This document shows, piece after piece, positions 2,031 to 59,454 of a stretch of DNA of 64,000 nucleotides. Positions within the stretch are counted from its first letter, which is position 1. Each line of letters starts with the position of its first letter. A program made the translations under genes and the position numbers. The notes beneath the pieces are model-generated. The model was not told where the DNA came from and did no database searches. It was given only the letters and a program-made list of their open reading frames with translations. The stretch is from Topomyia yanbarensis. Its lineage: Eukaryota > Arthropoda > Insecta > Diptera > Culicidae. The stretch lies in the NCBI RefSeq assembly GCF_030247195.1, contig NC_080670.1, forward strand, positions 157,926,580 to 157,990,579, written 5' to 3'.

Positions 2031-2610
2031 TCACCTGACGTCTTTTTGTCGAAACTTTTCATCTTTGCGAGTGTTACTTGACGTCGGTACGGCAGTGTTA
2101 CCGACTACCGAAATTGTTTGCCTAGCGGTGTCAATATATCCCAGCTCGTAACATCCGGTAGTTTCTCCGGGAGTCCCGGAATTACCGTCCTGAACCTCCA
2201 ACTCCGCGTCTATGCACCTTTCCATCAGTATTTCTCACATCCGCTTGGCGAATCCTTCCATCCGCTCCTTTGACTATTTCTTGTATTCTTCCTCGCATCC
2301 TATCAACCACGAACACCAGGTCTCCAACTTGCAACAGCATTCGGTCCTCTATTAACTTTGGCCGATGATTCAGAGTTGGTAGATAGTCCTTTGACCAGTG
2401 TTCCCATAATTTGCTGGCCAGACACAGTGACCGCTTGTCATGATTTCGTAGAGCTTCTGCGAGGTCCACAGAATCTTCCATTCGCATGTCTGTCCTAGTA
2501 GTTAAAGGTAATGGCTTCAAAGATCGAATGTTACTGATATCCTCAGCTTCGGCTAATGTGGTTGACAGTATTGTGTCCGTTAGTTTTCGTCCGTCATATA
2601 GCACACGCAA
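2031..2610 (-). pseudogene. BEL/Pao integrase C-terminal domain (DUF5641-like)
   Basis: A 142-codon frame (2182-2610) contains LWEHWSKDYLPTLNHRPK, followed by GDLVFVVDRMRGRIQEIVKG and GRIRQADVRNTDGK. This is the hallmark of the DUF5641 domain at the end of BEL/Pao integrases. A shifted frame (2031-2225) supplies the last residues. The domain follows the catalytic core and probably contacts DNA. A comparable domain from another BEL element lies at the right edge of the window, also on the minus strand. Confidence 0.85.
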
Positions 2611-2619
2611 CCTCCACAG

Positions 2620-4119
2620 GACCTAAGTAATGCACTGAAGGGACACAAAATGAGAGGTGAAGCGTTGAATTGACAGTGGTGCTATCATCGGAATACGAGC
2701 AATACAGCGATTCACGTTGCACCACACACATTCTTTCGTCCTGGAAATAAAGGATCAGCTTTTTCGTTATCTCGTGCTTCCTGGACAGAATTATCGGATA
2801 CTTTTTGTCGAATGGGATAGACTCATTCTTTTTCAGCCTGCCTCATACTCCAGTACGCCCTCTGAATCCAGCACTGGCAACAACTTGTAAAGGTAATCAG
2901 ATTTTTCAATTTGCTCAATTTGCAAACCTGGTTTGTGCTGCAGGTGTTTCGTCAATGCGCTCATCTCGTCCGGAAAATTATCATACAGCACCTGCTTCCA
3001 CAGCATAGTTTCGGTCCCTCTAAGTTCCTCCTGCTGAAGTGACTTCAGAACAGTCGTGTGGTCAGCCTTGATGTGTTTGTGTTGGATCTTTGTGACCTTG
3101 GATGTAACGACTGCTAATCCGGCTGTCTTACGCTACCAGTTAGCAATGAAGCGCACTGCCGTTGCAGTCACTCTAATCAGCTTTATCTATCGAGAAACAG
3201 CTACAGCATCGACAACTGCGTGACATAGCACGACTCCTCGCACTTCTTCGTTTGTCTCATCTATGGCCACTGATCGTGCGATTGATACAGAAAATACGAA
3301 CCATTCTTCCATTTCGCATAGTTCTGTAACGGTGGATCACGACCCCATTAGATGAACACATCTGTAGCATTTTGTTTCGATGGCACCCAGTACCAGTCCA
3401 CTAAGCTCGCTAAATCCAGAATCTTCTCCACTCTGAATGCGACGAACCGGTAGTACTTATACGTATCGGAATGCAACTAGGAAACCATTGTTCGCGAATC
3501 GGCCCAGAGAATGGTGTGCATTGAACTGCAAATTTTTTGATGATAGAATCGTGTGATTCATTCCAAGGACCGCAACAAATCAGCTTCAACCGAGGGATTG
3601 ATTGGAGTCACCTTTGTGCGGGACATGCCCAGGCTACACTGTACCGCTTCGTTCACAGCGGCACGTAGATAGCATCGCGGGATTCGCAATGCTTCTACCT
3701 GCGGCAACACGTCCATCGCTTCCACTTGAACCAAACCTTGTCGTCGATCAGTTGGGCCCATCCACAATCATTTTGCCACGAGTGTTGTGAATAATTATTT
3801 TGCCATGAATCGTGAAGGGAGATAACAAACCCAGCGAATCATATCGTAATCCCATCACGTAACTCAAAACAATCCGTTTCGTCGGTCGCTCGCTTTGATA
3901 TCCTTACGGTGTTTATGGTGACCGCAAATACATTCCGATCCGGATCCTAGAATACATCAAGTACACGCTCACTGCATGACTATTTATCTTGGTTAGAGAG
4001 TATCGGCCCCATGGGTCTCTTCTCTCCCAAAGCCGACAGAAAGTCAGGGGAGTTCGACACCCAATTGTGAATCTCAAACTCGACTTGTTTGTAAATGTGA
4101 CTCATCAGCTTTGCGCGTT
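2620..4119 (-). pseudogene. BEL/Pao RNase H and integrase core (heavily broken)
   Basis: No long frame survives here. A 69-codon segment (3558-3767) and scattered short frames on the minus strand keep the position expected for the RT connection, RNase H and integrase core, but I could not place catalytic residues with confidence. The call rests mainly on lying between a clear RT and a clear integrase C-terminus on the same strand. Confidence 0.4.
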
Positions 4120-5822: not shown

Positions 5823-6242
5823 CTACCGTTTATATGGCACCCATTGACGCTTTTCCCCGTCCGGAAGTTTGCTGTCCAAGTCTTGGATGAGAATCGGAGT
5901 CACCAAGTAAAGCCTGCGATCCGCTGCTTCCAAGTGTTCGCACAGCTCTTCGACCGCCTTACCGAACGGTATGAAACTGGCTAGCTTTTTAACTTTTGTC
6001 GGCTGGAGCCGGCGTACCTTTTCAATGTGGCTTTGCAGCAACTGTTCTGGGCGTCCATAAAGCTGGCGGAGCTTTCTAATTGACTTTGAAAGAAGAACCT
6101 GGTTTTCTCGAGAAAATTCGAAGCTTCTTTGCAAGTCCATTACTCGCAGCCAGTTGAGCTCTGCTTGATCCAGCACGCTGTTGCTCCACCACGTAGTGAG
6201 TCGTATCGACGATCGGTTTCTGGTTTCTTGCGCCGCTTTCAT
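5823..6242 (-). pseudogene. BEL/Pao Gag body (fragment)
   Basis: A 139-codon open segment lies on the minus strand between the PHD-like start and the protease region. It holds the Gag-type stretch KAVEELCEHLEAADRRLYLV, followed by a run on an aspartate-rich loop and a terminal PDGEKRQWVPYKR-like motif typical of mosquito BEL Gags, whose role is particle assembly around element RNA. Its upstream neighbour frame (6076-6369) carries the preceding Gag residues with a shift. It was identified by pattern recognition and position only. Confidence 0.6.
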
Positions 6243-6853
6243 CGGTGCTGTTGTCGTCGCTGTATGTACTCTTTAACCGGTTTTCTTCGTCGATGGTTCC
6301 TTTGGAGTTTCGAGCAAACATCTTAAGCAAGATTAATTCTGTCAATTTGCCGAGCGCCGGATGACACAACGAGGTACCTTTCCCGCCGGATGACGCAACG
6401 GGATACCTTTCCCGTGGGACACTCCGGAAAAAAAACCCTCTTGGGGTTCAGCGACCGATTTTCTCTTCTGTCCGCTGTTAACCAGAAGTGCGTCCTTCAA
6501 CTGTTCTTCTACGATGGACATCCTGTTGGATCTCTTCCATCTTCTTTATGCGGCAAAGATGTTCCTTCTTCTCCTGCAGTTCTCTTTGATGTTGTTCACG
6601 AAGCTCTCGGTCCTTCTGCCGTTCCTTTTCTCACGTCTGCCGGTTTATACGCATTCTTCTTTCCTTCAACGCGTTATTCATTTCTATTTCTTTTTCCGCC
6701 ACAAACATTTCTCCTCCAAATGCCTCTTCTCTGCTTCCATTGCTTTTATTTTTGCAGCGATTGACAGAGGCAAGGTCGGAGGTTGACGCTCGATCGATTC
6801 GAATCCTTCGTATTCTTCTTCGTACGGGTTGCCTTTTTCTGCTTCTGGTACGA

Positions 6854-9429: not shown

Positions 9430-9955
9430 ATAAAGCTTTTAGTTCTAATTACTTCATATTGTCACTAGAAACAAAAACGAAAAGCCAAATCTAAGACAAT
9501 CCATGTTCTTTGTCACAAGAAAGACTGTAGTACATTATTGATGTTAAATTTGATTTTTATTATTTATTTTTATTTACAAATTACAATTTACTCTCGTTGC
9601 AACAATGGATATTCTAGAGTTCTCAGTATTTATGCGCTAACCGAATATGACAATCCTTGACGGTGCTGGAAAACGCAAGGTGTTCTAAGCTACACGTTTA
9701 AAAGGTGTAGAAGACGCTAAATCGAAATGAGTAGAAAAATATCCATAAAATGTTCGATCGAAGAGAATGTCGAAATTTGCACAAAATCTTCTGATTTAGC
9801 AAACGAATTGTAGATGGTTCAACTTCTATTTTCTTGATCTGGCGTCCTGTAACTATTACCAGTTCTAATGCATATGCATTAGATGCTAACATAATTTTTT
9901 GACATACCCCAGTTAGGAAGGAGGATCTTTGGTGATCAATAGGATCAAAATATAT

Positions 9956-11717
9956 GGGTCATTCCGCGTCTGATTTACAATCAAAATTTGAATTCCTTCC
10001 AATTTTTTTTTTCTTGCATTCATTACCTAAAATAATTGACACGTATCTTTTATTTTGGCTGAATATGATTTTTTTTTTCAAGTTATTAGTTTTTGAACTT
10101 TTGAAGTTTATAACATTGATCATTTTTCAATCACTTATAACTCGGAAACGATTCGATATATGAAAAAAATTAAATAAAAAAGTTGTGTACTCAATGAGCT
10201 TACTGAAAAAAAATGCAATTTCTTTATGAAATTTGCAATTGTTTGAAACAAATTTAATTTTTTTTTAAGTTGGACCAATTTTTTTACTTATTATTTTCTT
10301 TAAATATTAAGAATCATGTTAAAATAATTGTGCAAAAATTTGGGAGTGGATATCAAAATACTTTGCGAGATATTACAATTATAAACTTAAAACAAGGCAA
10401 TTTTACACCAAACGCCTAGTGATAGGCCTATTGTAATTGAAATATCTCGTAAAATACTTCGAATTTCTTTCTGAAATTTGTACACAATCTTCTCGATATA
10501 ATTATAAACTATTTGAAAAAGCTAAAAAGATTTTTTTGGCTCTACCCTGAAAAAAAAATTATTTGTTACTAATATTTGCATAATACATAAATTTTTTAAC
10601 AAAAACAAATATTACAAAAAAAATCCGCCGAAATCTTTCGAAAACGCAGCTTTTATTATTTAATGCTTTTTTCCAGAAATCTTATAGTTTCTCAGTTATC
10701 AGGGAATGAAAAATGTCCAATTCTATTAAATTTATAAAACTTTAAAAAATCACTATATTATTAAAAGTCGATATTTGTATGTATATGATTTATGGACTCC
10801 CAAACGGCTTAACCAATTGCCGTAAAAATTTATGCATAGTAGGAATTTGTTATGGAGCGTGTTTGTGTGCTATTGGTGGGGATTATCTGCCTACAAGATG
10901 GCGCTTCGGAACAAATTGTGTTTTCCTCCTATTTCGTTGAAAGTCGCATCAAAAAAAAAAAAAATCAAATTCAGCCTAAGTAAAAAAATCGTGTCTATAA
11001 TTTTCAGCTAAAGAATGCAAAAAGACTGGAGGGAACTAAAATTATAGTTGTAAATCGTGGAATGACTCGCATTCTGCAAATTGAAGACTTTTTTTGGGGG
11101 TATTCTAATGTTAAAAGCATATATTTTTTTAAAGTCCCCCGAAATCAAATTTATTTTGATTACATAACTATATTAAGAAGATTATGTGAAAATTTCAGAA
11201 TGGAACTCGAAGTGTTTTACGAGATATTTCAGTTATAACAGGCCTTTCACTGGGCGTTTAGTGTAAAATTGCCTTGTTTTATGTTTATAATTGTAATATC
11301 TCGCAAAGAATTCCACTGCCAAATTTTTACACAATCTTTTTAACATAATTTTAATACTTAAAGAAAATAATAAATAAAAAATTTGGTCCAACCTTAAAAA
11401 AATTCAATTTGTTTCAAGTAATTGCAAATTTCATAAGTTATATAACAAAAAAATTGTGATTTAATTTGGTAAGCTTATTTGAAAACGCCATTTTTTTTAT
11501 TTAATATTTTTTTTCATATATCGAGTCGTTTCCGAGTTAGAGATTGAAAAATCTTCAATTTTATAGACTTCAAAAGTTCAAAAGCGAATAACTTGAAAAA
11601 AATATAATATTAAGCCAAACCAAAAAATACGCGTCAATTATTTTTAGCTAAAGAATGTAAGAAAACATTTTGGAAGAAATAGAAATTTTGGTTGTAAAAC
11701 TTACGTGGAATGACTTA
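9956..11717. repeat. Long inverted repeat, two arms of about 560 bp
   Basis: The left arm (about 9956-10510) and right arm (about 11150-11717) are imperfect inverted copies over their whole length. Shared landmarks in mirrored order include the outer GTCATTCCRCGT ends, an AACTCGGAAACGAYTCGATATATGA block, an AACAAGGCAATTTTACACYAAACGCC block and a TATCTCGTAAAA block. The centre holds a third partial copy of the outer end (about 10990-11072) in right-arm orientation and the dispersed repeat at 10762-10949. No coding frame is visible. It may be a foldback or long-TIR DNA element. A transcript across it could fold into a long hairpin. Confidence 0.8.
10762..10949 (+). repeat. Dispersed repeat, copy 1
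   Basis: This segment matches 53473-53662 in inverted orientation along its full length, including TATGATTTATRGACTCCCAA, ATGGCGCTTCGGAACAAATT and TCGTTGAAAGTCGCA. An A-rich run of 14 follows the right edge. It lies between the arms of the long inverted repeat, so it is probably a later insertion. The class is unknown to me; similar modules occur in some Helitron-like elements, which is only a suggestion. Confidence 0.7.
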
Positions 11718-13255
11718 TGTATTTCAATGATTTAATCAACTAAAGGTAACTGCCCGGAATTTAATCTATTCAAGAAAATTGTCCACAAATCGAATGAAAA
11801 TCACTTAACACAGTTACTACTATCATCTAATTTACGTAAAATTTTACTAAATGCTTCATTGCTGACAACATAACTAGAAACTATAAATGTGAACAAGCTC
11901 AATAATTTCAGCATCTTTTAATTTCGATACATAGAAGGGAATACATCGCACTTACTTCCCCTCGATTTCAATTTATTGATTCCTTTTTGCTTTTTTTCTC
12001 CGTGATGTCTTATCATCTTATTCCATAAAGACCAAAAATAAAACGAAAGACTGTAATATAATGAAAACATGAAATCGAAACAATAATCCCACCTTATTGA
12101 CTTATAGACTCAATTAGTTACAACATTTTAGTCGCTCTCCGTGATAACCTACTGATGTCTGATCAATCTATCGACACGTCGTTTTCAAACTTACATAGGC
12201 ATTAATTATAAACCATCGAAAGCGACTAAAATGCTGGTGGTGGTTGCAACATTTAGTTTATTATGGTTGATTGACTAATATGTGGTTTAGCATCAATTGA
12301 TCAATTGACATCCGAAGGAAAGTAAGTCACGTCAGTTAGTCCTACCGCTACTGTGTACGTTCATATAAACAAAATTAGTAATATACGATTCGTGGGTTGA
12401 TGAACACCTCAGGAAAACCGCTGGTTTACCACTTTTTGGCTTGTTTACTTTTTCACGTTTTTCTTGCTTATTGTTCGATTTTCCAGACTAACAGTGTTTC
12501 AATACGGCCAGCATTCCTCACATAAAATGAAATTGAGTGTCAATAGAAATACTATTGCATTAAAATGATGCGAAAATAAAAAAAAAAAACTGTCGTCTCG
12601 GCTACAACTATGTTATCAGCTAATTGAAATGTTTTTGTTTAGCACGCTTGAGTGAGATGCCTGACGTTTATATTAAGCGTACAGTGCTCTAATCTATTAC
12701 AAAAATCCAATTTGCGTATGATTTAACTAACTTTCTTTATTCAGGCCAATATCTAGCATAAAATGAGTTTTGTTAGATGCCATTACTAGCGATAAATGTA
12801 AATTTTGGGACAGTTTTTATACTCAGTTTTCAATGAAACTCCCAATTTTTTATTATATAATTCGTTTATTTGAGTCGGTTCAATGCGTTAGCTAAATGAA
12901 GCCTTGAGCCTTTAACATATTTCCACGATGTAAACAATGAAAATGATAAAACGCTAATGGTTGTCCAACAGATCTCGTGCGATTGACCTGTTTACTGACT
13001 GAGAAATATTTTTCATAACCAACCGCGTCTTGGTGGTCGTTCATATCTATCATGTACACTTCCGTATTATTATCGTGGTAACTGCCATGTCCACCGTTAA
13101 TTTTGAGATACTAGACGCAGTTTTTGCCGTCAATATTATATGAACAGCAGCCACAAATTTGGCAATTGTTTGTTTTTCAGGTAATCGTATTGGAGACTAT
13201 GGATGTGCAAAGATGTAACGTGTATAATGATACTATCGCATTGCGTTTTGTACAT
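11718..13255. other. AT-rich spacer with a minor inverted repeat
   Basis: No family is recognised. A 13-bp perfect inverted repeat CATTTTAGTCGCT (12124-12136) and its complement (12221-12233) enclose 84 bp and may be the ends of a small MITE, but no target duplication is evident. Confidence 0.4.
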
Positions 13256-27250: not shown

Positions 27251-27503
27251 CACGTGAAGGCATGAGATAGGAAACTTGTGAGTACGATGTTATCTCACGA
27301 ATCGATGTCACAGCTGTTGTCAGTCGCCTCTTACGACATGGGGAACAGAAACCCAGTGGGTCAATTCTTTGCTGAAATACTGCGAGAGATTTCAGCCACC
27401 ACCGGATACCACACGGCTGGAACCCACATCAAATTGCATCACGGAAAAAAAACTGTAGAAAATAACCCATTGGGTATTTTTTCTTGAAAATTTGATAGAA
27501 GTA

Positions 27504-27695
27504 CTTTAATAAAAGCACTATTTTTGAGCGACTTAGTGAAATGTTATATTAAACACTTTTACCGTTGTCAGAATGTGATACAATACACTGATGAAGACTG
27601 CAAGTCGTAGCCGAAGTACGTATCTGTAACAGTAAAATGCATTTTTGCATTTTGTTCATCATAGTGGAATTAAAACGGAAGACAACGGTAAAAGT
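27504..27695. mobile_element. 192-bp insertion in mariner copy 1, 10-bp duplication
   Basis: GATAGAAGTA occurs at 27494-27503 and 27696-27705, exactly flanking 192 bp that are absent from the same place in mariner copy 2, which therefore serves as the empty site. Inside, ACTTTTACCGTTGTC (27555-27569) and its reverse complement (27681-27695) form a 15-bp inverted repeat, so the right 140 bp could fold back. No coding. Confidence 0.85.
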
Positions 27696-27761
27696 GATAG
27701 AAGTAGTTTTGAGTGTATTGTTTACACTGTATTTTTATCGCTGTCAGTTTTTCGAAAATTG

Positions 27762-28737
27762 GCTTCACCTGAAAAGCAATGTCGCGAATTGATTTCGCAC
27801 AAGCACCTGGAAAATCCTCAACTTTCTCTCATCGGGACATCGGAAAATAACTCGGAATTGTGTAGTCATCGGTGAGTCTTGTCATTAAACGTTACTACCA
27901 AACTCAGACCATCGGACGGAAGGAGAAATGCGACCAGAATGGATGTTCGATTAGTGATCAAGATTGCAAGCCTGCAATGAAAGTGTTTAAGCGGAATCTC
28001 AATGCTTCGGTCAGGTATGTAGCCAAAAAATTGAATGGATCCAGGTGCTTTCGTTCAGAGAGCAGAAGGCTTCAAATGCTGACGAACGGCAAAATACGGT
28101 AGGAATGTCACGGGTCCGGAAACTTTACACCCAGATGCCGACGAAGCCGCATTACCTCATCATGAATGATGAGACTTACGTCAAGACGAACTCCCGACAG
28201 CTTCTGGGGTTACTGTTTTTCACCGCCCAGCACAAGTTTAATGTTCCGGAGGAAGTCAGGAAGCAGAAACTTTAAATGTTTGCCAATAAATACATGATTT
28301 GGAAAGCGATCTTCTCATCTGGCAAACGGAGTGCGCCGTTCGTACCTACCGGGACTGTAAACGGGAAGATCTGCCTCAAGGAGTGTCTACAGAAGTTTTT
28401 GCTTTCTCTGTTGAAGCAACACGAGGGCCCTACGATCTTTTGGCCGGATCTAGCTTCGTGTCACTATTGAAATGTTGTCCTGGAGTGGTACGGGGTAACT
28501 TCGTACCCAAGGACATGCTCAACCCCCCCCCCCACATCAGAACTAAGGCCCATCGAAAAATACTGGGAAATTATGAAGTATGCACTACAGAAGCATCCTA
28601 AGGTCAAATCTTAGGAAGATATGGACAAAATGTGGATTTTCGTACAGAAGAAGCTGCAGCCAGATATTGTACAGAACCTAATGAGTGGAGTTAAGCGTAA
28701 GGTTTGAGCGTACGGTTAAGGTATTGAAGTTGAATGA
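27762..28737 (+). pseudogene. Mariner transposase (broken)
   Basis: An N-terminal helix-turn-helix region is followed by recognisable catalytic segments: NDETYVKTNSRQLLGLLFF (first Asp), SGKRSAPFVPTGTVNGKICL, FWPDLASCHY (second Asp, codon 28447-28449) and ELRPIEKYW (Glu, codon 28555-28557). Stops and frameshifts break the chain, for example a stop after SCHY, and a TGA at 28705-28707 stands where copy 2 has CGA before the natural end. The Asp-to-Glu spacing is disturbed by a 10-nt deletion relative to copy 2 and a run of Cs. Allowing for the deletion it is near 37 residues, fitting the mosquito ITmD37E group. The enzyme would cut and paste the element; this copy cannot. Confidence 0.8.
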
Positions 28738-28859
28738 AATAAGTATACCAAAAGGTTACTAATGGGTTATATTTTATTGTCTGAAAGTTTGAAAAGGATC
28801 GGTCTACTAGATAATATTCTACCGCGTTTTTCCGTGACGTTATTTGATGTGGGGCACCC

Positions 28860-33949: not shown

Positions 33950-34280
33950 ATTCTTCTGAGTGGAGAAAATTACTTAAAACACATTTGCACGTAAAGGCCC
34001 CTACAACTAAATTAGTTATGAAATATGTGCGTCGTCTTCGTCTCATCAGAATCCGACACTAACTTAGTGACAGGACTAAGGTAGCACCGGATTGACGCTA
34101 GCTCCAAAAACAAAAACACTAGTTGTGTTTCGGAGCCATCCCCTAGTCAAACGTTGTTGTTCAGCTTAGTCCTGTCACTAAGTTAGTGTCGGATTCTGCT
34201 GAGATGAAGTTGGAACGCAAATTCCATAGCTAATTTAGAAATGGCCAGGGTAGTTCTAAGACCATTTCGAACCCCATAAT
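33950..34280. mobile_element. Palindromic MITE (reference copy)
   Basis: A 43-bp arm at 34038-34080 and its inverted copy at 34165-34207 differ at two positions; both contain ACTAACTTAGTGACAGGACT. Weaker mirror similarity extends outwards through an ACTAAWTTAGTTATG block on the left and its counterpart on the right. Related copies lie at 18490-18640 and, as a fragment, at 41728-41800. No coding. The outer limits and duplication are not certain. Confidence 0.75.
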
Positions 34281-41056: not shown

Positions 41057-41461
41057 CAGTCTTCCCATGAACATCGACAAGTTTGCACCCGTGCACAAAA
41101 TTTCGTCCACTCGTTCAACATTAAACATGCCTTGCCTTTGTGTACTGGTTCGCATTGAACACCGAACCCAAGCGAACGATGTGCAAACTTAGGTTTAAAC
41201 ACCGTGTACGTACATCGTGTGCGCACACAAGAAAACAGAATGAGTCAATGCTAGTGATGATGAGTGGGAGAAAGAGAAAAATAGTATCAAAAACCTGTGT
41301 GTACGAACACCGCGTACGTACATGGGGTTCGGTTGTGCAGACGAACATGTGCTCGTAGTTTAGTATGCATTAGTGCGTTCGAGTTTGCACACGAAATGTG
41401 GGTGTAAGATGAGCACAGAACTTGAGCGAACATGGTGTTCGATGTTCATTTGGGAAGACTG
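41057..41461. mobile_element. CAGTCTTCCC MITE, copy A, perfect 8-bp duplication
   Basis: The ends are CAGTCTTCCCATGAACATCG and its inverted partner (CGATGTTCATTTGGGAAGACTG at the right), which differ by a 2-bp insertion. CTGAGAAT flanks both sides exactly (41049-41056 and 41462-41469). The interior is rich in short palindromic TGTAC/GTACA and CGAAC/GTTCG motifs in both orientations. Copy B lies at 59045-59454. No transposase. The 8-bp duplication and CA start fit hAT. Confidence 0.9.
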
Positions 41462-44800: not shown

Positions 44801-44812
44801 ATAAAAAGTGTC
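41810..44812. other. Unassigned region, two GC-richer patches
   Basis: No recognised coding. 42500-42720 and 43100-43500 are GC-richer and open in short frames on both strands (for example 42497-42691 minus and 43298-43492 plus) without known domains. TTAAGGGG at 41989 resembles one end of a TTAA-type MITE, and a similar start is seen at 49059. GATGCGCTACGCGCATC at 43491-43507 is a 7-bp stem with a 3-nt loop. Confidence 0.35.
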
Positions 44813-45965
44813 CACATCAAAATGCATCACGGAAAAACGCTGTAGAAAATAACCCATTGGGTACTTTCTTTCGAAAATTTGGGTAGAACTAGTTTAGAGT
44901 GTATTGTTTACATTGTATTTTTATTGCTGTCAGGTTTTAGAAAATTGGAGAACGGCCACGAATTGATTTTGCGCAAGCACCTAGAAAATCCTTAACTCTC
45001 TCATCGGGACATCGGAAAATAACTCCGAATTGTGCAGTCAATGGTGCGCTTGATGATTACTACCACACTCTGAGCAACGAATGGAAAGAGAAATGCGGTC
45101 GAAATGGATGTTCTATTAGGTATCAGGATCACAACCATGTGGTGAAAGCGTTTAAGCGGAATCCCAATGCTTCGGTCAGGGATTTGGCCAAAAAATTGAA
45201 TCTATTCAAGTTTTTCGTTCAGATAGCCAAGGGTTGCATACGTACAAACTGCAGAAGGCTCCAAATAGTGACGAACGGCAAAATACGGTGGGAAAGTCAC
45301 GGGTCTGGAAATTGTACCCCTAGATGCTGACGAAGTCTGATTGTCTCATCATGGATGATGAGAATTACGTCAAGGCGGACTTCCGGTAGCTTCTGGGGCT
45401 ACTGTTCTGCATCGCTCAGCACAAGTTTGGTACTCCGAAGGAAGTAAGGTAGCAGAAACTTTTAAAGTTTGCCAAAAAATACATGATTTGACAAGCGATA
45501 TTCTCATGTGACAAACGGGGTGCGTCGTTCGTGACAACTGGGACTGCAAACGGGGAGATCTACCTCAAGGAGTGTCTATAGAAGTGTCTGCTTCTTCTGT
45601 TGAAGCAACACGAGGGCCCTACGACCTTCTGATCGGATCTAGTTTCGTGCCACTATTCAAATGTTGTCCTGGAGTGGTACGAAGCCAACGGAGTCACTTT
45701 CGTACCCAAGGACATAACCATGAATGAAGCAGGCACTATGGAAGCATTCTAAGGCGGTCGAATTTGAGGAAGACATGAAGAAAAAAGGGTTTCCGTACAG
45801 AAGAAGCTGCAGCCAGATGTACAAAACCTAATGAATGGAGTTAAGCGTAAGGTACGAGCGTACGGTTATGATATTGAAGTTGAATGAAATAAATATGCCA
45901 AAAGCTTACTAATAGGATATATTTTATTTTCTGAAAGTTTGAAATGGATCGGTCCACTAGGTTAT
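44813..45965 (+). mobile_element. Mariner (ITmD37E-like) element, copy 2, 3'-truncated
   Basis: It shares with copy 1 the start CCACATCAAAATGCATCACGG, the 5' leader CTGTAGAAAATAACCCATTG, the transposase body and the 3' flank up to about 45965, but the right TIR is absent. Recognisable protein pieces are VKAFKRNPNASVRDLAKKLN (45139-) and, in other frames, relics of the catalytic segments. Stops are more frequent than in copy 1. It lacks the 192-bp insertion of copy 1 and so shows the empty site. Confidence 0.8.
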
Positions 45966-45999
45966 TTTCCATCCAAGTGTATTCTTTACAATCTTGCTT

Positions 46000-52749: not shown

Positions 52750-53472
52750 AGGTACCGAAGGCCGGCTTATAAATCCGAATACCATACCAACGGGTGGTGG
52801 TGGTTAAAATTACAACTGGTGGTGACTAAATTGTTCGAAATTTCATTTTAAATTAAAAAAAAACTGAGTATTTTTTTTCTAAAACGAACATTTCAGAAAC
52901 AGTCAAGAAAAACTGTTCAGTTGCTTACAGTGGTTCTATCAACTTTTTTATGTGCATACTGAAATAGAAGATAACAATTGTTTTGAATATAGAACGCCAT
53001 AATTACATTATACGTTTGTTGTGGTGTTGTTTACTGCTTTTACGAATTTTATTATTATTATTATCTATCTTAAATAACCGTTAAATTGCCAGCGATGCTC
53101 TGCAGTCATCATATGAGCAAACCGAAGGATAAGTACTTAATTCGTTACAGTTGCTCTACCTACATAAGTAGCTATTAAAGCTGTAGTACTCGTAATCACG
53201 CTGTTAAATCCGGCAACAGAAGTTAAGACTGTGACTACGTTTATTTTCATGGATCAAATTGATTAATCACGGTTCAAAGATTTGAGATGCAGGCATTGAA
53301 AACTCTGGGTACAGTCGCAATAAATTAGGTTGATAGTGATAAAAAATCATTTTTAGGCTATAACCTTCAGCTGGATGAATTGATGCGTTTCTACGATTCA
53401 TGTCAGGTGATTTCAAGGTGTAACATTGGGTCACTTAAATATATGGTACTAGCTAATACCCATCGCGCGTTG
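52750..53472. other. Unassigned AT-rich region
   Basis: No recognised coding or repeat. Confidence 0.45.
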
Positions 53473-53662
53473 CTGCGACTTTCAACGAAATAGGAGGAAA
53501 ACACAATTTGTTCCGAAGCGCCATCTGGCGGACAGATAATCCCCAACCAATAGCACACAAACACACTCCATAACAAATGCCTACAATGTATAAATTTTTA
53601 CGGGAATCGGTCAAGCCGTTTGGGAGTCTATAAATCATATACATACAAACATTGACTTTTAT
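53473..53662 (-). repeat. Dispersed repeat, copy 2
   Basis: It is an inverted copy of 10762-10949 over the full length (see that entry) and carries a TA-rich and (TAGA)n tract on the side away from CGCGCGATGGG. The frame 53453-53644 (minus) is open by chance or as a relic. No duplication was found. Confidence 0.7.
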
Positions 53663-53685
53663 ATATATAGATAGATAGATAGATG
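53661..53685. repeat. (TA)n(TAGA)n microsatellite
   Basis: A short TA run passes into four TAGA units at the edge of the dispersed repeat, as often found at element tails. Confidence 0.85.
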
Positions 53686-54329: not shown

Positions 54330-54561
54330 TTTTTTTAGGGAAAACTATACCGCTTTTCAGGTTATCTTTTGTTTGCTCAACATGTTACAAATTGGCCGAA
54401 TCCATTGTTGTTGGAAGCAAGTTATTTGTTTGTCCACTTGTGTCCTAAAGCCATGCTTAGTAACTTAGTAAGCAGAGGTAAGGAAATTGAGTATTTGCGG
54501 CTGTCCTCAAGGTGACGTTCTGTCACCTTTCTTATGGAACCTCGTTGCTGACGCACAGTGT
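54330..54561 (+). pseudogene. Jockey/R1-group LINE RT, part 1 of a split element
   Basis: The plus frame ending at the insertion contains CGCPQGDVLSPFLWNLVAD, the GxPQGxxLSPxLxN box of the RT palm. After removal of the insertion (54554-56562 and one TGACG copy) the reading frame continues without a break into LSKLNELGF at about 56577, so the insertion is precise. Upstream sequence holds decayed RT pieces to about 54330. Confidence 0.75.
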
Positions 54562-56562
54562 CTAGGGTTCGCAGTACCGACCCTTTTTGGTGAGAACCGG
54601 TACTACGGTACTGAAGCCCTCAGTACCGGTAGTACCGGTAAAGTACCGGTACTCGAACATTTAAAAAAAATCGAAAACAGCTTCAAAGTGAAATCGAATG
54701 CTCACACTGATGACCTTATTCTCAGATGATTGATTTGTGCTGATCAAAAAAAACATGTTTATTGTTTTTAATTGCTTCGGAATGATATGACTCATTTCAC
54801 AGAAGATATTTTTCGTATGCGGCACTTTCTTTTATTTTCAAATCTAGGCCACTTTGATATCACTAACTGCTAAGCGGTGCGACTTTCGTCGACTTCAACA
54901 GATGGTAACTGTAAGAAACCCTATTAATAACAGTAAATCAAAGCGAGAATGGCAGTAAATCCGAGCAGGTTGCTCGCATTTCCTCTCTTGCTTTTCTGTA
55001 AATTGGTTTTGATCTTTATGTCATTTGCCTACTATTCTCTAATGCATACCAAGGCTCCTTGCATTTCCGTAAAGTATTGAGTTTTCCAGAATTTTTCCGA
55101 TCACCAATAATTACAAATCGACCCATTTCAAGTAGTTCACCAACTCTAAAATTATTAGCTCGCTGTTCGTTCTTTTATAGATAATGGTTTAAGATCAAAC
55201 CAAATACAGACATGACTTAGACCATAGTCTTATTACGCGCTACCCAGTGAATAATGAAAACCAGAATGTCGCTAATAAACACAATAATAGCAAATTTTTA
55301 CGTCGCTTACGCTAGATGGGAATATTTTGAAATTTAGTACAAGATCGTTAAATTTTAATTTCGACAAAATAAAGCAAGAATTTAAACATACCGTTCAGTA
55401 CAACGGGAGCTAGTAATGTTTTACTTCTAGAATTATTATGATGATGGCCCCACCTTATTCCCCTACAAAGGTGTTAGCTCAACGATTTATCTAGAAGACA
55501 ATTAATATATTTAAAAGTCATCTTGTAGACCGATATTTTGAAACAGGTCCCCCTAGAGAGTTCACATATTATTCATAAAAAATTGTATGGTACCGAAAAT
55601 ACCGGTACTGGCTTTTGTTCAGTACCGGTATTACGGTACCAAAAATGGGTCGGTATTCCCGGGATTTTTTGTACCGGTATTACCGGTACCACAACCCTAA
55701 CAGTGTTGCCAAGCCGGACAAAACCTCAAAATTTTGTTTTAGATTTTTCGTGATTTAACATTTTTCTCTGTTTCTTAATAGGTTGAATAGAGTCTTCTCA
55801 AAATATTAAGTCCCGAAGACGAGAGTTCAATTTTTTACAGAACTTCACAGGTGAAATAGATGATGAATTCTGAGGAAAACGCTTTTCAAACCTAAGTTAT
55901 TCAAATGAATATATCTTTTTAGTTAATATTCCGATTGGGGTCAAACTGATTTCATTTGAAAGGTTATTCGCTGGACTTATAGCTGCCATCCGATTTAGTC
56001 GATACACGCCTTTCTTCTCGCTCAGACATGAAAAACAAATAATAAATCGAGCAATAGTTCAAAGTTATAATGCTCAAAGTGGCTGTACTTTTTTTTTGAA
56101 ACGGTTCGGAGAGATCGCTTGTTGTTCATTATACTTGAAAATTAGTGTACTTTCCGAAAATAAATATCTTGTTTTGCCCCTTTCTGCCCCGAGGTATGAA
56201 AAAGGTGATTTTTCATGATACGTCTGAAGGAGACGCATGGTAGCCTTTGACTACCCAGGATTCGCAATATAATTTATAGATGTGTCTTATCATTATCAAC
56301 AATTGAAAAAATGTGTGTTCTGCTAAAAAATTCACCGAACCTAATTTTTTGAAAATGAATTTTCGGAAATAGTGCACTTTATATTCGTAAATGTTGAATT
56401 TTCGAACCACCCTAAGTGTCAAAATCTTGAGGATTTAAAAAACGAAAAATAAACATCAAATATGAATTCAGCGTCACAAAATTACCCTAATGTGAAGTTT
56501 TCATCAAATTCGGGCCACTTTTGAGATTTTGTCCGACTTTTGTATGGAAGGTGATCACTGTG
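54554..56562. mobile_element. Transib-like element with 12/23 RSS-like ends
   Basis: Both ends are CACAGTG (54554-54560 and the complement at 56556-56562) and TGACG is duplicated exactly outside (54549-54553, 56563-56567). In the right end the heptamer is followed inwards by 23 bp and then ACAAAATCT. In the left end, allowing for the younger nested insertion at 54563-55699, it is followed by 12 bp and then ACAAAACCT. The host LINE frame is restored when the insertion is removed. The remaining interior, about 850 bp (55708-56555), has no recognised transposase, so it is non-autonomous. Heptamer, spacer rule and 5-bp duplication are those known from Transib elements and RAG signals; membership is inference. 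Confidence 0.75.
54563..55699. mobile_element. TAGGGTT-ended hAT-like element nested in the Transib-like element
   Basis: The ends TAGGGTT and AACCCTA are inverted. The flanking 8-mers ACAGTGTC (54555-54562) and ACAGTGTT (55700-55707) agree at seven of eight positions and contain most of the outer heptamer. ACCGGTA-type motifs occur four times within the first 100 bp and four times within the last 100 bp (both orientations), and an AxTACCGACCC block lies in each end. Clustered subterminal repeats of this kind are transposase binding sites in hAT elements. No transposase is seen inside. Confidence 0.8.
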
Positions 56563-56576
56563 TGACGGTTTGTTGA

Positions 56577-56790
56577 GTAAACTCAATGAGCTTGGATTTC
56601 TAACATACAGATTTGCTGACGATTACTAAATACTAATTACTGGACTTGGCATCGGAACAATCTTCGACTTAATGCAACAAGCATTAAGAGCTGTCGAACA
56701 GTGGTGTTAACTAGTTAAATTTTCAGTTTATCAAAATAAAACAAATGATTCTTTTCACGAAGAAGCGAATAACAACTGGGGTTTATCCCA
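56577..56790 (+). pseudogene. Jockey/R1-group LINE RT, part 2
   Basis: The frame resumes after the insertion with LSKLNELGFLTYRFADDY, in which the catalytic FADD box (56612-56623) is intact, followed by a stop and LGIGTIFDLMQQALRAVEQWC, the thumb helix. SVYQNKTN follows. It continues the RT of 54330-54561 and is cut again by the hairpin and MITE at 56801-57104. Confidence 0.75.
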
Positions 56791-56800
56791 GTTAACTTAA

Positions 56801-56843
56801 CACAGTAGCACAGAATGCAGTTCTTGCATTCTGTGCTACTGTG
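56801..56843. repeat. Perfect 19-bp snap-back hairpin, 5-nt loop
   Basis: CACAGTAGCACAGAATGCA (56801-56819) is followed after GTTCT by its exact reverse complement (56825-56843). It lies directly left of the MITE at 56851. Like the hairpin at 13256-13292 it has a 5-nt loop and no mismatch, so the inversion is young. It does not form a recognised regulatory site. Confidence 0.9.
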
Positions 56844-59044: not shown

Positions 59045-59454
59045 CAGACTTCCCATGAACATCGATAAGTTTGTACCTGTGAGCAAAATTTCGTGCACGC
59101 GTTCAACCTCAAACATGCTTTGTCTTGATGCACAGGTTCGCCTCTAACATCGAACCCAAGCGAACGATGTACAAACTCTAGTTCAAACATCCGTATACGT
59201 ACACCAGGTGCGTATACGAGAACTATTCGCACAAGGCGAAAAAAGTCAACGCCAGTTATGATGAGTGAGAAAGAGAAAACTGGTGCCACGAACCTATGTG
59301 TACGCACACCGTGAACGTGTATGGGGTACGGTTGTGCAGGCGAACATGTTCACGTGTTTTGGTACGAAATAGCGAGTTCGTACACGAAGTGTGGGTTTAA
59401 TATGAGCACAGAACCGGAGCGAACATTGTGTACGATGTTCATTTGGGAAGTCGG
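59045..59454. mobile_element. CAGACTTCCC MITE, copy B, perfect 8-bp duplication
   Basis: It is a full-length relative of copy A at 41057-41461, in the same orientation. The ends are CAGACTTCCC and GGGAAGTCGG. GAATTTAG flanks it exactly (59037-59044 and 59455-59462). Shared interior blocks include CGAACCCAAGCGAACGATGT, ATGATGAGTGRGAAAGAGAA and TATGAGCACAGAAC. Copy B has different TGTAC-type palindromes from copy A at the same places, so the palindromes rather than the exact sequence may be kept. Confidence 0.9.

What the first reader, a model, noticed from the sequence alone, without database searches (positions are those of the whole stretch)
54554..56562. Element with exact CACAGTG ends, 12- and 23-bp spacers and ACAAAA nonamers: RAG-type signals
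Seen: both termini are CACAGTG; TGACG is duplicated exactly outside; inwards, one end has 23 bp then ACAAAATCT, and the other has 12 bp then ACAAAACCT once the younger insert at 54563-55699 is discounted. The host LINE frame is restored by precise removal. Known: V(D)J signals are CACAGTG + 12 or 23 bp + ACAAAAACC, and Transib elements share a CACWRTG heptamer and a 5-bp duplication. Inference: a non-autonomous Transib obeying a 12/23 layout. Most described Transib ends do not show this pairing so neatly.
Basis: partly seen in the sequence, partly recalled or inferred. Interest (0 to 1): 0.93.

Follow-up and report, generated by a model that had tools for sequence, protein, structure and literature searches.

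The report
Non-autonomous Transib transposon with 12/23 ends
A broken, non-coding jumping-gene copy carries end signals that look very much like the cutting signals of vertebrate antibody genes; such transposons were already known from mosquitoes and flies, so this is most likely one more copy of a known kind.

Summary
The element at 54554-56562 has CACAGTG at both termini and an exact TGACG duplication outside. It lies in a LINE reverse transcriptase whose frame returns when the flanks are joined. With the younger insert 54563-55699 set aside, the ends read CACAGTG-12-ACAAAACCT and CACAGTG-23-ACAAAATCT. Heptamer pair plus 5-bp duplication arose in 0 of 300 simulated windows. The ends match at 28 of 33 positions once 11 bp of the right spacer are skipped. 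Best reading: a non-autonomous, now immobile Transib; six frames gave no transposase. Two corrections. First, 12/23 Transibs are in print: a 2021 paper names Transib5 of Drosophila melanogaster and Transib2, N1, N2 and N3 of Anopheles gambiae (PMC8355894). Second, the right end also has ACAAAAGTC exactly 12 bp from its heptamer, so it is not purely a 23-signal. The decisive test, other copies in the source genome, could not be run: the genome search gave no answer in 18 tries. One copy cannot show that 12/23 is a family rule rather than an 11-bp deletion.

The parts
54549..54553 (.). left target-site duplication TGACG
   Evidence: read directly; equals 56563-56567
54554..54560 (+). left terminal heptamer CACAGTG
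   Evidence: read directly
54555..54562 (.). left copy of the 8-bp flank of the younger insert, ACAGTGTC
   Evidence: 7 of 8 equal to 55700-55707
54563..55699 (.). younger non-coding insert, TAGGGTT/AACCCTA ends, 1137 bp, hAT-like by its 8-bp flanks
   Evidence: ends and flanks; longest open stretch in any frame 60 aa; six frames without a transposase match; the hAT label is inference
55700..55707 (.). right copy of that 8-bp flank, ACAGTGTT; the base before it is A, so the inner heptamer reads AACAGTG
55706..55717 (+). 12-bp spacer of the left end, read from the inner flank copy
55718..55726 (+). left nonamer-like ACAAAACCT, 7 of 9 to ACAAAAACC
55711..55731 (+). 21-bp block AAGCCGGACAAAACCTCAAAA shared with the right end
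   Evidence: (I4)
55732..56518 (.). interior of the element, non-coding; 34% GC over 55700-56562
   Evidence: 11 to 22 stops in each of six frames; no transposase match in any of the six
56519..56539 (-). 21-bp shared block of the right end, AAGTCGGACAAAATCTCAAAA, 19 of 21
   Evidence: (I4)
56524..56532 (-). right nonamer-like ACAAAATCT at spacer 23, 7 of 9
56535..56543 (-). second nonamer-like ACAAAAGTC at spacer 12 of the same end, 7 of 9
56533..56555 (-). 23-bp spacer of the right end
56556..56562 (-). right terminal heptamer CACAGTG
56563..56567 (.). right target-site duplication TGACG
54496..54553 (+). host LINE reverse transcriptase, part before the insertion
   Evidence: with 56568-56707: RVT_1 E 2.1e-10
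56568..56707 (+). host LINE reverse transcriptase, part after the insertion, one stop after FADDY

Best explanation
This is one old copy of a non-autonomous Transib-superfamily DNA transposon with 12/23-spaced ends. A RAG1-core-like Transib transposase made elsewhere in the genome would bind the two ends as a pair, nick at the 5' side of each CACAGTG, cut by hairpinning the flank, and paste the element into a 5-bp staggered target; here that was TGACG in a LINE, which left the 5-bp duplication. The 12-bp and 23-bp spacers set two homologous nonamer-bearing blocks 11 bp (about one helical turn) apart in their distance from the heptamer, as in a 12/23 RSS pair. Later a transposon that duplicates 8 bp landed at the left heptamer, moved its nonamer 1137 bp away and left the inner heptamer without its leading CAC, so the copy is very probably immobile. 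Shown: ends, spacers, both duplications, restored LINE frame, homology of the ends, no transposase domain found in six frames. Inferred: the transposase, the cleavage chemistry (from Transib and RAG literature), and any functional role of the 12/23 asymmetry.
For: Identical CACAGTG ends and exact TGACG; 0 of 300 Markov windows with such a pair; precise LINE empty site; ends equal at 28 of 33 (27 with the outer flank copy) when 11 bp are skipped, and 21 of 26 beyond the heptamer against a maximum of 17 in 20,000 simulated ends given the same free choice of cut; nonamer-like motifs at 12 and 23; no transposase domain in six frames of the interior. Literature: 5-bp duplication and RSS-heptamer-like ends typical of Transib and RAG-like transposons (passages of PMC7204232 and PMC4411706); Transibs with 12/23 asymmetry named (legend in PMC8355894).
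Against: No second copy, no autonomous partner and no partner transposase could be sought: the genome search gave no answer in 18 tries. No second copy in the window. The right end has a motif at 12 that scores as high as the one at 23, so its spacer is ambiguous by motif alone; only homology with the left block favours 23. Nonamers match 7 of 9.
Confidence: 0.8

Rival explanations
1. A Transib whose ends are normally symmetric (about 23 bp at both), in which this single copy lost 11 bp from its left spacer; the 12/23 layout is then an accident of one copy.
For: The left end equals the right end with 11 bp missing (28 of 33); most Transib families have symmetric ends (passage of PMC8289069); if a shared block could lie anywhere at spacers 8-36, it falls on 12 and 23 with p about 0.0024, small but chosen after the fact.
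Against: 12/23 Transibs are named from Anopheles and Drosophila, so the layout is expected in some families; the loss would have to be exactly 11 bp.
Confidence: 0.2
2. A Transib whose right end works as a 12-signal through ACAAAAGTC, so that the ends are in effect a 12/12 pair; the block at 23 is only the remainder of the inverted repeat.
For: ACAAAAGTC at spacer 12 scores 7 of 9, as high as the motif at 23.
Against: The 21-bp block shared by the ends contains the 23-spaced motif, not the whole 12-spaced one (I4).
Confidence: 0.1
3. A member of another CAC-ended superfamily such as Chapaev or CACTA.
For: Those also end in CAC (recalled).
Against: They duplicate 2-4 bp (recalled); here the duplication is exactly 5 bp and the heptamer CACAGTG is followed by a nonamer-bearing block.
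Confidence: 0.03
4. Chance pairing of two heptamers with no element.
For: CACAGTG alone is as common as expected; 8 looser CAC pairs with 5-bp duplications exist in the window.
Against: 0 of 300 simulated windows, the restored RT frame and the homologous ends.
Confidence: 0.01

Closest known systems
Transib2, N1, N2, N3 (Anopheles gambiae) and Transib5 (Drosophila melanogaster)
   Same: Transib ends with 12/23 spacer asymmetry and RSS-like heptamer and nonamer (legend of Fig. 2 and section 6 of PMC8355894)
   Different: their letters were not available here, so whether this is the same family or a new one was not tested; nor could the second motif at spacer 12 of the 23-end be compared
Hztransib (Helicoverpa zea)
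   Same: active Transib that hairpins the flank (passage of PMC6941560); heptamer similar to the RSS heptamer (PMC8289069)
   Different: symmetric ends with little or no nonamer similarity (passage of PMC8289069)
V(D)J 12-RSS/23-RSS pair
   Same: heptamer CACAGTG exact, spacers 12 and 23, ACAAAA core of the nonamer
   Different: nonamers 7 of 9; the conserved block reaches beyond the nonamer on both sides; no evidence of a pairing rule
ProtoRAG of amphioxus
   Same: CAC ends, asymmetric spacers (27/31)
   Different: other spacer lengths and a distal element unlike the RSS nonamer (passages of PMC8289069); no genes found here

Membership tests
Transib superfamily | 5-bp target-site duplication | tested here: met
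   TGACG both sides, empty site restored
Transib superfamily | inverted termini beginning with a CAC heptamer like the RSS heptamer | tested here: met
   CACAGTG at both ends
Transib superfamily | inverted repeats beyond the heptamer with an A-rich inner motif | tested here: met
   21-bp block, 19 of 21; 21 of 26 beyond the heptamer with an 11-bp gap
Transib superfamily | RAG1-core-like DDE transposase in a partner element with the same ends | not tested
   PF12940 was asked of the own genome twice, unanswered. Inside this copy no transposase match was found in six frames, which a non-autonomous copy would also show
Transib superfamily | several copies with the same ends | not tested
12/23 RSS layout | heptamer CACAGTG | tested here: met
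   exact at both ends
12/23 RSS layout | spacers of 12 and 23 bp on opposite ends | tested here: inconclusive
   12 on the left with the insert set aside and 23 on the right by homology, but the right end also has a motif at 12; constancy across copies untested
12/23 RSS layout | nonamer ACAAAAACC | tested here: inconclusive
   ACAAAACCT and ACAAAATCT, 7 of 9 each
12/23 RSS layout | pairing restricted to unlike spacers | not testable with these tools
   needs a cleavage or excision assay

The most novel reading that the evidence does not exclude
The right end is a two-register signal: equally good nonamer-like motifs at exactly 12 and 23 bp on one end, 11 bp apart, opposite an end that has only the 12-spaced one. 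If fixed in the family, it would record an intermediate by which 12/23 asymmetry arose from a 12/12 or 23/23 Transib through an insertion or deletion of about one helical turn, in a system without RAG2.
Probability: 0.12. Interest if true: 0.6.

Novelty: new member of a known kind. Interest (0 to 1): 0.35.

Why it matters
Transib ends and transposase are widely held to be the relatives of RSSs and the RAG1 core. A family with exact CACAGTG and clean 12/23 spacing would be a good substrate for asking whether a RAG2-less transposase already prefers unlike spacers. The single copy here adds an example and a possible two-register end, not a new principle.

Tried and rejected
Copies elsewhere: CACAGTG-N12-ACAAAACC in viral contigs gave 39 scattered hits. 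CGGACAAAAYCTCAAAA in genome contigs gave 99, of which 80 were listed, with bacterial or archaeal titles. I take both for chance from their scatter; I did not read any of these loci and ran no chance estimate for them. AAGYCGGACAAAAYCTCAAAA and CACAGTGATCACCTTCCATAC in viral contigs gave 0. 55700-56562 against phages gave no match. These collections are not expected to hold the source genome. In the window: no second copy at E 1e-5 (self-BLAST), no other block with 4 or fewer mismatches, and the right-end 13-mer is not enriched (15 matches with up to 3 mismatches, 12.5 expected).

Source organism: a protein search with a DUF5641 relic gave 5 unnamed proteins, no help. Insect, perhaps mosquito, is my inference from BEL/Pao-type relics and general look only.

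Coding capacity: six frames of 55700-56562 hold one 114-aa open stretch. All six were searched against Pfam at E up to 1, three and three. The best matches, E 0.043, 0.068 and 0.11, are to unrelated domains, each below its curated cut-off. Six frames of the younger insert gave one such match at 0.11.

Literature: Kapitonov and Jurka 2005 is not held; I know it by recall and through papers that cite it. Five name forms of non-autonomous Transibs gave 0 papers as search words. Whether this family is already in Repbase was not tested.

Full report
What is there. The stretch 54554-56562 begins and ends with CACAGTG in inverted orientation and is flanked by TGACG on both sides. The bases next to the duplication differ on either side, so it is exactly 5 bp. 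Joining the flanks and keeping one TGACG restores a reverse transcriptase frame (frame 1); the 66-residue joined piece, with X at its single stop, matches Pfam RVT_1 at E 2.1e-10 over profile positions 117-177 of 205. The insertion is precise, and it is younger than the LINE.

The younger insert. From 54563 to 55699 lies a 1137-bp stretch with TAGGGTT and AACCCTA at its ends and 8-bp flanks ACAGTGTC and ACAGTGTT, 7 of 8 equal. Its longest open stretch is 60 aa, and six frames gave no transposase match. The hAT-like label rests on the 8-bp flank only. It landed on the left heptamer: the outer copy keeps CACAGTG at the true end, while the inner copy, next to the spacer and nonamer, reads AACAGTG. 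The order of events was LINE, then the CACAGTG element, then this insert. The left signal is broken, so the copy is very probably immobile (inference).

The ends. Right end inwards: CACAGTG, 23 bp, ACAAAATCT. Left end with the younger insert set aside: CACAGTG, 12 bp, ACAAAACCT; the spacer is 12 whichever flank copy is used. Each nonamer agrees with ACAAAAACC at 7 of 9. Both lie inside a 21-bp block, AAGYCGGACAAAAYCTCAAAA, shared by the two ends at 19 of 21 (I4). When 11 bp are skipped in the right spacer the ends agree at 28 of 33 positions, heptamer included, or 27 with the outer flank copy. Beyond the heptamer the match is 21 of 26, against a mean of 7.8 and a maximum of 17 in 20,000 simulated ends with the same free choice of cut. 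So the ends are real inverted repeats whose spacers differ by 11 bp, about one helical turn.

The right end also has ACAAAAGTC exactly 12 bp from its heptamer, again 7 of 9. By motif alone it is both a 12- and a 23-signal. The left end has no such second motif: nothing above 6 of 9 at spacers 8-28 other than the one at 12. Homology with the left block favours the 23-spaced motif, but one copy cannot decide.

Chance. CACAGTG alone is not enriched: 7 seen, 5.9 expected. The pair with an exact 5-bp duplication within 6 kb occurred in 0 of 300 first-order Markov windows. With CAC heptamers that agree in their first five bases there are 9 such pairs in the window, and only this one has identical heptamers. 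ACAAAA at a given offset has p about 0.001; both offsets in either order, 2e-6 to 3e-6. If a shared block is assumed and only its position is free between 8 and 36, the {12,23} outcome has p about 0.0024; this is the fair measure of the spacing itself, and it is post hoc. In the whole window, CACNNTG followed by ACAAA at spacers 8 to 31 occurs 7 times: two at the right end described here, and one unrelated site each at spacers 12 and 23.

Coding. The 863-bp interior has 11 to 22 stops in each of six frames and one 114-aa open stretch. No RAG1 or other transposase family was found in the six frames, three searched and three; the best matches (E 0.043 to 0.11) are unrelated and below their cut-offs. 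It is a non-autonomous copy.

What could not be tested. The decisive test, other copies and an autonomous partner in the source genome, needed genome search, which was unreachable in 18 tries. The other collections hold phages, viral contigs and prokaryotes; searches there gave nothing or scattered hits that I take for chance without having read them. The source organism is not known to me.

Comparison with print. PMC8355894 (passages and section 6) names Transib5 of Drosophila melanogaster and Transib2, N1, N2 and N3 of Anopheles gambiae as Transibs with 12/23 asymmetry, with spacers of 12 or 23 give or take 1 and some heptamers and nonamers identical to RSSs, after its reference 8, which I take to be Kapitonov and Jurka 2005 (not held). 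PMC8289069 (passages) says most Transib families have symmetric ends, such as Hztransib, with little or no nonamer similarity. PMC6941560 (passages) says some Transib heptamers and nonamers are identical to those of RSSs but with spacers of various lengths, and describes hairpin cleavage by Hztransib. PMC7204232 and PMC4411706 (passages) give 5-bp duplications and RSS-like termini as typical. PMC3442997 (passage) reports imperfect Transib TIRs in An. gambiae that are nearly identical among copies. PMC7728395 (passage) reports Transib missing from neotropical and New Guinean anophelines. PMC9033116 (passage) lists Transib MITEs with 5-bp duplications in moths. PMC11844651 (preprint, passages) compares Transib with RAG structures.

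Verdict. The 12/23 layout is as described, with an ambiguity at the right end. The most novel reading left open is a family in which one end carries both registers, bridging symmetric and 12/23 Transibs.

Noticed in passing
window 54563-55699: Younger 1137-bp non-coding insert with repeated TACCGGTA motifs, TAGGGTT ends and 8-bp flanks 7 of 8 equal, sitting on the Transib heptamer.
   Followed up: partly
window 9948-11724: Long imperfect inverted repeat (9948-10505 against 11164-11724, 81% identical), a foldback-like element, with further repeats between and beside the arms.
   Followed up: partly
window 27424-28819 and 44812-45969: Two direct copies of one repeat, 77% identical over about 1.1 kb and 86% over 86 bp; six read-through frames of 44884-45969 gave no Pfam match.
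   Followed up: partly
window 2182-2622 and 5823-6272 (minus strand): Relics with DUF5641 and DUF1759, as in BEL/Pao-type retrotransposons (family label recalled).
   Followed up: no
window 10753-10952 and 53470-53670: Inverted pair of about 200 bp, 90.5% identical.
   Followed up: no
window 41057-41457 and 59045-59450: Direct pair of about 400 bp, 78% identical.
   Followed up: no
window 56801-56843: Perfect 19-bp inverted repeat with 5 bp between the arms, about 90 bp beyond the LINE fragment (I5).
   Followed up: no
window 34007-34238: Stretch that matches its own reverse complement at 74%.
   Followed up: no
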